Origin: Buchnera aphidicola (Aphis aurantii)
GTDB lineage: Bacteria > Pseudomonadota > Gammaproteobacteria > Enterobacterales > Enterobacteriaceae
Direction of reading: 5' to 3'
Assembly: GCF_039388985.1 (NCBI RefSeq)
Contig: NZ_CP135021.1
Coordinates: 558,001-622,000 of the forward strand
DNA length: 64,000 bases
Below the pieces are notes generated by a model. The model saw only the letters and a list, made by a program, of their open reading frames with translations, made no database searches and was not told where the DNA came from. Position 1 is the stretch's first letter; each line of letters begins with the position of its first letter. Positions 23,509 to 55,923 of this stretch are shown here, one piece after another. The position numbers and the translations under genes were made by a program.

Positions 23509-24152
23509 ATGGAATGGAAAAAAGAATTTATTGAATTTCTTTTAAAAAAAAAGTCTTAAATTTTGGAAAATTTATACTAAAATCCGGACGTACAAGCCCA
23601 TATTTTTTTAATTCAGGTTTATTATCTACAGGAAAAGATACTGCTAAAATTGGATCATTTTACGCACGTGCAATAATGGATTTAAATATTAAGTTTGATG
23701 TATTATTCGGACCTGCTTATAAAGGTATACCTATCGTAGTTTCTACTTCAATAGCACTTAAAAATCAATATAATTTAAATATTCCATATTCTTTTAATAG
23801 AAAAGAAGAAAAAAAATATGGAGAAAAAGGGCAATTAATAGGGGGAGATATTAAAAATAAAAAAATTATTATTTTAGACGATGTCATAACATCAGGCATG
23901 TCAATAAATCATTCAATTAAAATTATTGAAAAATCAAATTCTAAAATATCTTCAATTTTCGTTTTGCTAGATCGAAAGGAGAAAAGAGAAAGTAACTTGC
24001 ATAAAATTAATTATTCAACAAAACAAAAAAGTCATCAAATTAATTCTATCATTACAATTGATGATTTAATTAAATATCTTTCTAAAGAAAAAAAACTAAA
24101 AAAATATGCTTCTAAATTAATAGAATATCATATAGAACATGGTACTTTTTAA
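23509..24152 (+). pseudogene. pyrE: Orotate phosphoribosyltransferase, frame broken in an A9 tract
   Basis: Fifth step of pyrimidine synthesis: orotate + PRPP to OMP. The ATG at 23509 opens MEWKKEFIEFLL as in E. coli, but TAA at 23557-23559 stops it after the A run at 23544-23552 (nine A). With one more A the frame continues as KKVLNFGKFILKSG and runs to 24152, giving 214 residues against 213 in E. coli. The downstream part keeps FGPAYKGIPI, the catalytic basic loop near FNRKEEKKYGEKG, and the PRPP motif IILDDVITSGMS. No other damage is seen, so it is either rescued by slippage, very recently broken, or a miscalled homopolymer. Confidence 0.85.
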
Positions 24153-24163
24153 AATTTTTTATT

Positions 24164-24625
24164 TTATACTCCAGAATGACCAAATCCACTTGTATGGCGA
24201 TCAGTTTTTTTAAATTCTTGAACTACACTAAACACAGGTCGAATAATTGGAACAAAAACTATTTGGGCAACTCTATCGTTAGGATAAATATAAAATTCTT
24301 TTTTGCTTCTATTCCAAAGTGAAATCATTAATTCTCCTTGATAATCTGAATCAATTAATCCTACTAAATTACCTAAAACAATACCATTCTTATGACCTAA
24401 TCCAGATCGAGGTAGAATTAAAGCAGTAATATAAGGGTTTTCAATATATATCGAAATTCCAGTTGGAACTAAAATCACTTCTGTAGCGTGTAAAAGTATT
24501 TTTTTGCTTATCGATGCCTTCAGATCCAATGCAGACGATCCGGAAGTAGCATATTCAGGTAAAAAATTGCTATTTTTTTTATTATTAGTATTATCGTTTA
24601 GAAATTTAATTTGAATTTTACTCAT
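24164..24625 (-). CDS. dut: Deoxyuridine 5'-triphosphate nucleotidohydrolase (dUTPase)
   Basis: Hydrolyses dUTP to dUMP, preventing uracil in DNA and feeding dTMP synthesis. 153 residues, E. coli about 151. The five dUTPase motifs are present: ATSGSSALDLKA, LPRSGLGHKNGI, GNLVGLIDSDYQGEL, RVAQIVFVP, and RHTSGFGHSG at the C-terminus. An in-frame ATG at 24631 would add two residues; E. coli alignment favours 24625. Convergent with pyrE, only 11 nt apart. In E. coli dut and pyrE are also close neighbours. Confidence 0.95.
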   Translation of the reverse strand: MSKIQIKFLNDNTNNKKNSNFLPEYATSGSSALDLKASISKKILLHATEVILVPTGISIYIENPYITALILPRSGLGHKNGIVLGNLVGLIDSDYQGELMISLWNRSKKEFYIYPNDRVAQIVFVPIIRPVFSVVQEFKKTDRHTSGFGHSGV

Positions 24626-24659
24626 GTTCATAATTATTTAATTAAAGTATATTTTAATG

Positions 24660-25415
24660 TCATGATAAAACTAAAAAATCTGGATTCATTAAAGATTTTT
24701 CAGAAATTAAAAAATAATTTAAATCTTTTTCTTCATTATTACTATATGTTATTACCCTACCCCCCGCAGCTTTTACAATTGCATCTCCTGCCGCCGTATC
24801 CCAAATATATGTTGCTCCAAATCGTGGATAAATTTGAGCTTTTCCTTCTGCTATATAACCAAACTTTAGAGATGAACCCAATTTTTCTATTGTATATTGT
24901 TTTGTTTTTCTTAATAAATCATATATTTTTTTATTTGGATGTGATCGACTTATAAGAAATTTTGGTATATTTGATGAAACAACAGAAATTTTTTTTTTAT
25001 ATCCTTTAGAATCTACTTTCCAAGCTTTATTTTTATACGCGCAATATAAAATATTAAAAAAAGGAGCATATATAACACCTAAAATAGGTATTCCATCTTT
25101 AATTAAACTAATATTAACTGTAAATTCTCCATTTTTTTTTAAAAACTCTTTAGTTCCATCTAGTGGATCAATTAACCAATAGAGATTCCAATTTTTATTA
25201 TATTTAATATAATGTATATCTTCCTCAGATAATATAGACACATTAGGTAAAATAGTAAATAATCCATTTTTAATAATTTCATTAGAAATTTTATCTGCAT
25301 TAGTCACTGGACTTTTATCTATTTTATATGAAATATTTATTAATTTACTAGAATAATAACATTTCATAATAGCATCTCCGGCATCTTTCGCTAACTTACA
25401 AATTTTTTTGAGCAT
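24660..25415 (-). CDS. cysQ: 3'(2'),5'-bisphosphate nucleotidase (PAP phosphatase)
   Basis: Removes the 3'-phosphate from PAP, a by-product of sulfate assimilation, and belongs to the inositol-monophosphatase family. 251 residues, E. coli 246. Metal-binding motifs are SEEDI, WLIDPLDGTKEFLK and WDTAAGDAIVKAAGG. VTNADKISNEII near the N-terminus is also typical. It lies 26 nt downstream of rplI in the same direction. The retained enzyme fits Buchnera lineages that still reduce sulfate to make cysteine. Confidence 0.95.
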   Translation of the reverse strand: MLKKICKLAKDAGDAIMKCYYSSKLINISYKIDKSPVTNADKISNEIIKNGLFTILPNVSILSEEDIHYIKYNKNWNLYWLIDPLDGTKEFLKKNGEFTVNISLIKDGIPILGVIYAPFFNILYCAYKNKAWKVDSKGYKKKISVVSSNIPKFLISRSHPNKKIYDLLRKTKQYTIEKLGSSLKFGYIAEGKAQIYPRFGATYIWDTAAGDAIVKAAGGRVITYSNNEEKDLNYFLISEKSLMNPDFLVLS

Positions 25416-54129: not shown

Positions 54130-54222
54130 AATATTTTAAAATAATTTAAAGTCGATTGTCGCTAATTACATATTTTATTATGATTTCATAATCATTTTTA
54201 TATAAAATATTTTATACTAAAT

Positions 54223-55167
54223 ATGAATAGTAATATGAACAAAAAAATATTAAGAATTGCTACTAGAAAAAGTCCTTTAGCTTTAGAACAAACTAAATAT
54301 GTTACAAAAAAAATATTATCTTTATATCCAGAATTAATTATACAATTAGTACCTATAGTTACACATGGTGATAATATTTTAAATAAATCACTTTCAAAAA
54401 TTGGAGGAAAAGGACTTTTTATAAAAGAATTAGAGTTTGCTTTACTTGAAAATAGAGCAGATATTGCTATACACTCCATGAAAGATCTTCCAATTCATAT
54501 TACTAAAGGATTGTGTTTAATCAGTATATGTAAAAGAGGAAACCCATTAGATTCATTAGTTTCTAATAACTATCAATCGATTAATCAATTACCTAAAGGA
54601 GCAACAGTTGGAACGTCTAGCTTAAGAAGACAATGCCAATTAATTACGTATAGACCAGATTTAGTAGTTTCTCCTTTAAGAGGAAATATAGAAACAAGAA
54701 TAGCTAAATTAGATCAAGGTCAATATGATGCGATAATTTTAGCAACCGAAGGATTAAATAGATTAGGTTTGAAACATCGTATTACTCAAATTATACCAGC
54801 TGAATTGTCATTGCCTTCATGTGGACAAGGGGCTATTGGGATTCAATCTAGATTGAATGATAAAAAAATGCTGTTTCTTTTATCACGTTTAAATCATATC
54901 AATACTTTTACTGAAATAAATATAGAACGTGCATTTTGTAAAAATTTAGAAGCAGGCTGCCAAATTCCCATTGGAAGTTATGCAATTCTAAAGAAAAATA
55001 AAATTTGGCTTAGAGGATTAGTTGGTTCACCTGACGGGGCTATTATATTAAAAGGAGAAAGAATTGGGTGGTGTGATACTTCAGAAGCCATGGCAAGTTC
55101 TTTGGCTAATGAATTACTTAAAAACGGTGCTCGTAAAATTCTTGATGATATTTATACTACCAATTAA
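54223..55167 (+). CDS. hemC: Porphobilinogen deaminase (hydroxymethylbilane synthase)
   Basis: Joins four porphobilinogens into hydroxymethylbilane. 314 residues, E. coli 313. The N-terminus LRIATRKSPLALEQTKYV, GGKGLFIKELEFALLENRADIAIHSMKDLP, GTSSLRRQCQL and the dipyrromethane-cofactor cysteine in EAGCQIPIGSY are all intact. The alternative start at 54235 loses four residues. hemD follows 7 nt later, as in E. coli. The rest of the haem pathway is not in this window; in Buchnera the pair probably feeds sirohaem for sulfite reductase. Confidence 0.96.
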   Translation: MNSNMNKKILRIATRKSPLALEQTKYVTKKILSLYPELIIQLVPIVTHGDNILNKSLSKIGGKGLFIKELEFALLENRADIAIHSMKDLPIHITKGLCLISICKRGNPLDSLVSNNYQSINQLPKGATVGTSSLRRQCQLITYRPDLVVSPLRGNIETRIAKLDQGQYDAIILATEGLNRLGLKHRITQIIPAELSLPSCGQGAIGIQSRLNDKKMLFLLSRLNHINTFTEINIERAFCKNLEAGCQIPIGSYAILKKNKIWLRGLVGSPDGAIILKGERIGWCDTSEAMASSLANELLKNGARKILDDIYTTN

Positions 55168-55174
55168 ATTTAAA

Positions 55175-55923
55175 ATGAAAATATTAGTGATGAGACCTTC
55201 TCCTGAAGGGGAAAAATTAGTAAATATATTAAATAATATGGGAATTTTATCTTGGCATTTTTCTTTGTTTAACTTTTTACCGAGTTTAAGTTCAATCAGC
55301 TTATCAAAAAAAATTTATGAATTATATACGTCAGATATAATTCTTTTTTTTTCTAAAAAATCTGTTTATTATACAAACTTATATTTAAATCAAAATAATC
55401 TTCATTGGCCTATTGAGCCTGATTACTACACTATTGGACAAGGCACTGCTATTTTTCTCAATAAATATATTAAAAAAAAATTTTATTTCCAAAAATTTCA
55501 GAAAATAGTGAAGCTTTATTAGAACTTCTTTATAAAAAAAATCTACGATCATCTAAAATAATTTTAATGAAAGGAGAAAATGGAAGACAATTAGTAGAAA
55601 AAGAGTTAACACAAAAAAATTTTGATGTATCCATTATAGAATGTTATAAAAAAGTTTTTAAAACAATTAACAACCACATTGAAGTAAAAAAATGGCGTTC
55701 TTATCAAATTAATACATTAATAGTAACTAGTGGTGAAATTTTAAATAGATTAAATGAAAAAATAAATTTTTTAAATAAACATGAATGGCTATTTAAATGT
55801 AAAATATTTGTTGCAGGAAGTAGATTAAGTGAAATAGCTAAAAAAATAGGATGGAAAGACATCGTAATATCTAATTATGCTGATAACAACAATTTATTAA
55901 ATATTATTAAAAAACATAATTAA
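55175..55923 (+). pseudogene. hemD: Uroporphyrinogen-III synthase, frame broken in an A9 tract
   Basis: Closes and rearranges hydroxymethylbilane to uroporphyrinogen III. The ATG at 55175 begins ILVMRPSPEGEKLV as in E. coli (SILVTRPSPAGEELV) and runs to a stop at 55522 after the A run at 55472-55480 (nine A). With one extra A the frame becomes KKKILFPKISENSEALLELL and continues through MKGENGRQLVEKEL, IIECYKKVF and TLIVTSGEILNRL to 55923. The corrected protein has about 249 residues; E. coli has 246. Both halves are conserved, so the break is recent, tolerated through slippage, or a sequencing miscall. Confidence 0.85.

What the first reader, a model, noticed from the sequence alone, without database searches (positions are those of the whole stretch)
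23509..55923. Five genes in 64 kb are each broken once, always in a run of 9-11 A
pyrE (A9, 23544-23552), orn (A11, 40467-40477), amiB (A11, 40882-40892), the orphan gene (A9 on the minus strand, 48647-48655) and hemD (A9, 55472-55480) are otherwise intact on both sides of the break. Four are restored by one extra A, amiB by one fewer. Slippage of RNA polymerase on poly(A) tracts is known to rescue such genes in Buchnera and Blochmannia. Comparable A10 tracts in hemW (17409-17418) and mutY (20091-20100) are in frame. Alternative: systematic homopolymer undercalling in the assembly, which would also give mostly missing single A's.
Basis: partly seen in the sequence, partly recalled or inferred. 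Interest (0 to 1): 0.85.

Follow-up and report, generated by a model that had tools for sequence, protein, structure and literature searches.

The report
Ancient slippage-dependent genes in Buchnera
In this aphid symbiont, five genes are split between two reading frames at long runs of A; four of the five are also split in many related symbionts, and the parts that could be tested are still under selection, so they are probably working genes read through slippery sites rather than dead genes or sequencing errors.

Summary
The window is Buchnera aphidicola, probably of an Aphis-group aphid. All five frame breaks are real. Across 36 genomes of the genus they are not one phenomenon. The orphan gene is out of frame at exactly nine A in 33 of 34 genomes, yet is one open frame in 34 of 34 matching sister-genus genomes. 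hemD is broken at or near this run in 28 of 33. The amiB pieces are out of frame in 19 of 25 scored relatives, at varying runs. pyrE is broken in 14 of 36, including 13 of 14 of one clade. orn is broken in 6 of 35, with differing run lengths. The tested pieces of pyrE, hemD and orphan stay under purifying selection, and their downstream pieces have no common start codon at their beginning. Assembly error is excluded for pyrE, hemD and the orphan, improbable for amiB, undecided for orn. Best reading: RNA-polymerase slippage restores part of the transcripts, as published for other symbiont genes. It is not shown here; a 2017 Buchnera survey saw no rescued frame.

The parts
23509..23559 (+). pyrE upstream piece (16 codons and its stop)
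   Evidence: same 12-residue peptide in 10 of 13 broken clade genomes, 1-2 changes in two, diverged in G050
23544..23552 (+). A9 run; reads as A_AAA_AAG in the upstream frame
23553..24152 (+). pyrE downstream piece, -1 frame
   Evidence: PF00156; omega 0.112 in 13 broken genomes
40014..40490 (+). orn upstream piece
   Evidence: PF00929
40467..40477 (+). A11 run in orn
40478..40558 (+). orn downstream piece, -1 frame
40764..40913 (+). amiB upstream piece (signal-like)
40882..40892 (+). A11 run in amiB
40894..41643 (+). amiB downstream piece (amidase), +1 frame
   Evidence: PF01520, on 41185-41643
48566..48979 (-). orphan gene, upstream piece
48647..48655 (-). A9 run in the orphan gene, exact in the 34 genus genomes that have the gene
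   Evidence: 33; G045
47454..48644 (-). orphan gene, downstream piece, -1 frame
55175..55522 (+). hemD upstream piece
55472..55480 (+). A9 run in hemD
55483..55923 (+). hemD downstream piece, -1 frame
   Evidence: (PF02602, on 55567-55923)

Best explanation
The orphan gene, hemD, pyrE and (less certainly) amiB are working genes whose two halves lie in different frames. RNA polymerase slips on the A (or T) run while transcribing, so part of the messages carry another number of A's and encode the full-length protein; the rest make a truncated one. Shown: the breaks, their sharing among lineages, continued purifying selection on the downstream pieces of pyrE, hemD and the orphan and on the upstream pieces of hemD and (weakly) the orphan, and the lack of a common start codon at the beginning of these downstream pieces. 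Inferred: that full-length protein is made, and that the slipping machine is RNA polymerase. The orphan's site looks fixed, almost programmed: exactly A9 throughout the genus and out of frame in all but one of the 34 genomes that have it. orn is a recurrent, unfixed case. The odds given here and for the rivals are not exclusive, since the genes may differ.
For: Sharing: orphan 33 of 34 broken, single frame in 34 of 34 matching sister-genus genomes; hemD 28 of 33, with open frames of 249-270 aa in 8 of the 10 sister-genus genomes that match; pyrE 14 of 36 in 3 changes on the tree, open frames of 209-248 aa at 17 sister-genus loci. Selection: pyrE downstream piece omega 0.112 when broken, 0.095 in frame; hemD upstream/downstream 0.141/0.151 and 0.203/0.203 in two broken sets, 0.211 (downstream, 5 genomes) in frame; orphan downstream 0.282 and 0.240; seven intact controls 0.035-0.145; omega = 1 fits worse in all 18 sets. 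The orphan's A9 has the same length in 33 of 33 relatives, against a median of 23% (maximum 71%) of relatives at 23 in-frame control tracts. First ATG in the orphan's downstream frame scatters over codons 25-193 (33 genomes). Both shift directions occur: orphan -1 in 29, +1 in 4; hemD -1 in 24, +1 in 3. A slipping polymerase gives many lengths; -1 ribosomal shifting serves only one direction. In print: 12-50% corrected transcripts in genes of an aphid and an ant symbiont (PMC5009743, passages); in Buchnera 151 of 157 transcript insertions lie in homopolymers (PMC5574713, passages).
Against: [quoted passage not shown] No RNA or protein was examined here. The orphan's upstream piece evolves fast (omega 0.51-0.57; about 1 or above in two of nine pairs), so selection on it is weak. 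hemD is degenerate in G002, has 3 stops between its pieces in G015, and was not found in the fetched G046 stretch: decay follows in some lineages, and in five of the 28 broken genomes the hemD break is not at this run (by eye). The pyrE upstream piece is too short for a syn/nonsyn test (4 vs 9 codon types, p = 0.32). amiB's break lies at different runs in different genomes and its selection was not measured. hemD pairwise dN/dS (0.15-0.56, leaving out one mis-framed pair) exceeds most controls (0.05-0.23). In pyrE an ATG at codon 41 of the downstream piece is shared by 8 of 14 broken genomes, so a truncated protein from there is not excluded; rare starts such as ATT were not excluded either.
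Confidence: 0.72

Rival explanations
1. Ribosomal -1 frameshifting on A_AAA_AAN, not polymerase slippage, joins the frames.
For: In the upstream frame pyrE reads A_AAA_AAG, the dnaX-type heptamer, orn A_AAA_AAC, the orphan and hemD A_AAA_AAA; such heptamers were found at frame transitions in PMC3711429 (passages).
Against: amiB here, and 4 orphan and 3 hemD copies in relatives, need the other direction, with the orphan's downstream piece still constrained in a +1/+1 pair (G001-G006, w 0.21). No stimulator was sought.
Confidence: 0.2
2. Pseudogenes: breaks are the first step of decay and the pieces have no function.
For: Most pseudogenes of four Buchnera genomes come from mutations in homopolymers (PMC3164680, passages); hemD has decayed in G002 and G015; orn breaks are scattered, 6 of 35 with 6 changes.
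Against: Orphan and hemD breaks occur on both sides of the Aphidini-Macrosiphini split (G015 or G000 against G018; tribe names recalled), for which PMC3164680 uses 65 million years (50-70 tried), with omega far below 1 in pyrE, hemD and the orphan's downstream piece. Fits best for orn.
Confidence: 0.12
3. Assembly undercalling of A in homopolymers.
For: No reads seen; four of five downstream pieces are in the -1 frame; orn's A11 is of private length.
Against: Breaks in the same genes in many separate assemblies; 42 of 47 coding runs of 9 or more inside open frames.
Confidence: 0.04
4. Split genes: the downstream pieces start on their own and work as separate proteins.
For: The amiB downstream piece holds the amidase domain and might act without the signal piece; pyrE has an ATG at codon 41 of the downstream piece in 8 of 14 broken genomes; two orphan genes yba3/yba4 are annotated in Buchnera (PMC1899503, passages), identity with this one unknown.
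Against: No ATG/GTG/TTG common to the genomes at the beginning of the downstream frames of pyrE, hemD or orphan; single frame in sister genera; G044 has both orphan pieces in one frame through a second, downstream indel.
Confidence: 0.08

Closest known systems
Poly(A)-tract frameshifts rescued by polymerase infidelity, Buchnera and Blochmannia (Tamas et al. 2008 PNAS; not held; known through passages of other papers)
   Same: AT-rich symbiont, single break at a long A run, otherwise intact gene
   Different: There rescue was measured in RNA; here it is inferred, and for other genes as far as the passages tell (cell-wall and histidine genes)
Ancient frameshifts maintained by selection (Wernegreen, Kauppinen and Degnan 2010 MBE; not held; title seen in a reference list; idea described in PMC3017870, passages)
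   Same: Old, shared frame breaks without decay
   Different: Here in Buchnera, with one site out of frame in 33 of 34 genomes and of exact length across the genus
dnaX of Thermus thermophilus: programmed transcriptional realignment at nine A (PMC3711429, passages)
   Same: A9 run, two products expected
   Different: dnaX products both have roles; no role is known for the short products here
E. coli dnaX -1 ribosomal frameshift at A_AAA_AAG (PMC3711429, passages)
   Same: pyrE carries the same heptamer in the same phase
   Different: No stimulator sought; other sites need the other direction

Membership tests
Selection-maintained homopolymer frameshift | Frame break at a long homopolymer in an otherwise intact gene | tested here: met
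   all five in G000
Selection-maintained homopolymer frameshift | Break shared between species | tested here: met
   met for orphan, hemD, pyrE; amiB broken in many but at varying runs; orn not: lengths differ
Selection-maintained homopolymer frameshift | Purifying selection on both sides | tested here: met
   met for hemD and, weakly upstream, the orphan; pyrE downstream met, upstream inconclusive by counts; orn and amiB not tested
Selection-maintained homopolymer frameshift | Corrected transcripts and full-length protein | not testable with these tools
   no RNA or protein data
Programmed transcriptional slippage | Slippery run conserved beyond ordinary runs | tested here: met
   orphan A9 in 33 of 33 relatives vs control median 23%, maximum 71% at 23 tracts; not claimed for the other genes
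Programmed transcriptional slippage | Use of both products | not testable with these tools
   none
Programmed -1 ribosomal frameshift | Slippery heptamer in the right phase | tested here: met
   pyrE A_AAA_AAG; phase also fits orn, orphan and hemD in G000, not amiB
Programmed -1 ribosomal frameshift | Always the -1 direction | tested here: not met
   +1 copies of orphan (4) and hemD (3) in relatives, and amiB here; pyrE alone is -1 in all 14
EspG/VirA fold (orphan downstream piece) | Fold of the C-terminal domain | tested here: inconclusive
EspG/VirA fold (orphan downstream piece) | Secretion and action in host cells | not testable with these tools
   none

The most novel reading that the evidence does not exclude
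The orphan gene is a genus-wide programmed slippage gene: its A9 has been held at exactly nine and out of frame since before the Aphidini-Macrosiphini split because the out-of-frame state itself is useful, setting a low dose or making two products of a host-directed protein with an EspG/VirA-like (Rab-binding) domain.
Probability: 0.25. Interest if true: 0.85.

Novelty: new member of a known kind. Interest (0 to 1): 0.6.

Why it matters
If true, gene counts that call such loci pseudogenes in reduced genomes would be wrong in a systematic way, and a bacterial genus would depend on slippage at a fixed site for tens of millions of years. The set also gives a natural experiment: fixed (orphan), mostly broken (hemD, amiB), clade-wide (pyrE) and flickering (orn) tracts in the same genomes, which makes the question of when slippage shields genes from decay directly testable by RNA sequencing of aphid symbionts.

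Tried and rejected
Genus-wide comparison rejected the single-genome error reading for three genes. A search for further broken genes with ORFs of G095 (chromosome length of published strain Bp) found one break in G000 100-300 kb and two in 300-460 kb, all near T9-T11, but none of the five in the window (only a spurious match at a tRNA), so this method is too blunt to compare rates; I make no claim that the window is enriched. The reverse control listed five places in G095, three of them without a run of 7 or more. The pyrE upstream syn/nonsyn count was not significant (13 genomes; G041 left out). In one search the G019-G023 hemD downstream row (w 2.95) is a mis-framed piece and was disregarded; hemD rows with runs over 10 or upstream lengths of 71 or 125 codons were dropped, and the pyrE upstream piece was not run. 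In one search G002 was dropped from the hemD count as degenerate; G009 (masked) and G046 (no hit in the fetched stretch) could not be scored. By eye, 23 of the 28 hemD breaks lie at this run (21 at -1, 2 at +1) and five (G012, G015, G019, G023, G050) elsewhere; in G018 and G051 two runs are possible. amiB was scored by a motif rule in 25 of 33 genomes with the amidase piece; 8 were missed, G000 included (read); G003 and G017 have both pieces in one frame but with a stop between, G017 also with a masked stretch. In one search the script found no tract in G002, G015 and G050 (hemD) and G045 (orphan), and picked another run in some hemD rows; hemD states are therefore taken. omega trees were quick searches per gene, not a fixed species tree. 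Paper searches for an EspG-like or orphan protein in Buchnera led only to PMC1899503, PMC1084347 (its one Buchnera mention is FliN) and PMC8109811 (orphan genes only in its reference list).
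Full report
What the window is. G000 has a 628,870-base chromosome and two small contigs. The larger of these matches Buchnera leucine plasmids, best at about 86% those of Aphis aphids; the host is therefore probably an Aphis-group aphid. The genus holds 36 genomes here.

The observation. All five breaks are in the sequence. Four downstream pieces lie in the -1 frame, that of amiB in the +1 frame. Of 51 A/T runs of 9 or more, 47 lie in genes and 42 of these inside a single open frame. 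A general failure to count A's would have broken many more.

Orphan gene. In the genus, 34 of 36 genomes have it; G005 has no match and G009 is masked. The run is exactly A9 in all 34 (33, G045). The downstream piece is -1 in 29, +1 in 4 (G001, G006, G014 by script, G045 by eye) and in frame in one, G044, through a second indel further on. At 23 in-frame control tracts in 13 genes (14 examined), the share of relatives with the same length has median 23% and maximum 71%; for the orphan it is 33 of 33. Of 392 family genomes searched, 39 matched, five in the genus and 34 in sister genera. In those 34 the gene is one open frame of 274-537 aa with a methionine within its first 18 residues, beginning MSS in 19, like the piece in the window. 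So the break probably arose on the way to this genus and was kept.

hemD. Of 33 scored genomes 28 are broken: 24 at -1, 3 at +1, and G015 in the same frame but with 3 stops; 5 are in frame. By eye 23 of the 28 breaks lie at this run. In sister genera 10 of 34 genomes have a match, 8 with open frames of 249-270 aa. G002 is degenerate and was left out.

pyrE. Broken in 14 of 36: 13 of the 14 members of the clade with G015 and the window's genome, and G041; G042 of that clade is in frame. The parsimony count is 3 changes. The A9 is the same in broken and most in-frame genomes; the frame differs through the T-rich bases before it. At 17 sister-genus loci the frame is open for 209-248 aa; 23 of 34 genomes had a match, six of them only weak ones, probably to other genes.

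amiB. The signal-like piece was recognised in 25 of 33 genomes with the amidase piece, all of them relatives: out of frame in 19 (13 at -1, 6 at +1), in frame and open in 4, in one frame but interrupted in 2. G000 itself was read. The runs involved differ, often T9.

orn. Broken in 6 of 35 with different run lengths and 6 changes on the tree. This is the flickering state expected of a long run, and nothing here shows whether G000's state is old, harmful or an error.

Selection. Codon models on each piece in its own frame gave omega 0.112 for the broken pyrE downstream piece against 0.095 in frame; hemD upstream and downstream 0.141 and 0.151 (clade A), 0.203 and 0.203 (others), downstream in frame 0.211; orphan downstream 0.282 and 0.240, upstream 0.565 and 0.512; seven controls 0.035-0.145. 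Close pairs agree in direction, with hemD and the orphan's upstream piece looser than controls. The pyrE upstream piece is more conserved than the rest of the gene (97.9% at codon positions 1+2 against 87.0%) in 12 broken genomes, G050 and G041 left out, but its syn/nonsyn count is not significant. orn and amiB were not tested.

How it works. The downstream pieces of pyrE, hemD and the orphan have no start codon common to the genomes at their beginning, so they most likely need the upstream piece's start; in pyrE an ATG at codon 41, shared by 8 of 14 broken genomes, could at most give a shortened protein. Runs of nine A can slip in RNA polymerase and in ribosomes. Both directions of shift are found among relatives for the orphan and hemD, with the downstream piece still constrained in an orphan +1/+1 pair. 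A polymerase that adds or drops a variable number of A's covers both; -1 ribosomal shifting does not. I therefore favour polymerase slippage, about 0.72, with ribosomal shifting as the main rival, and a mixture possible at pyrE, whose heptamer is the dnaX one.

Against what is known. Passages read describe rescue by slippage in an aphid and an ant symbiont (12-50% corrected transcripts, PMC5009743), frame breaks conserved between symbiont species without decay (PMC3017870; a 2010 paper whose title alone I saw), and 8-18 homopolymer frameshifts in each of six Aphidinae Buchnera genomes (PMC3164680). A later survey in Buchnera found slippage common in A/T runs yet no rescued frame (PMC5574713). 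In the listings of searches, and in the passages I opened, I saw no report of the orphan or hemD break; most subscription papers are not held and tables of frameshifted genes in supplements were not open to me, so this is no proof of novelty.

Checking. 

Noticed in passing
47457-48644 (-): AlphaFold model of the orphan's downstream piece matches EspG/VirA, a fold of host-directed effectors; weak but consistent.
   Followed up: partly
L148 (G044) 8207-9751 (-): Only genome of 34 in which both orphan pieces lie in one frame, through a second indel downstream of the A9.
   Followed up: partly
L163 (G015): The end of hemC and the start of hemD share one ORF, and hemD has three stops between its pieces.
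   Followed up: no
G000:C1 about 239898, 338199 and 415456: Three further frame breaks against G095 ORFs, beside T11, T10 and T9 runs.
   Followed up: no
42054-42305 (+): Small ORF with an A13 run whose length varies from 8 to 18 in the 14 relatives with a match.
   Followed up: no
33592-35010: About 1.4 kb without an ORF of 80 aa or more; perhaps an eroded gene.
   Followed up: no
L153/L154 (G042): pyrE in frame inside an otherwise broken clade, while its hemD, amiB and orphan are broken.
   Followed up: partly
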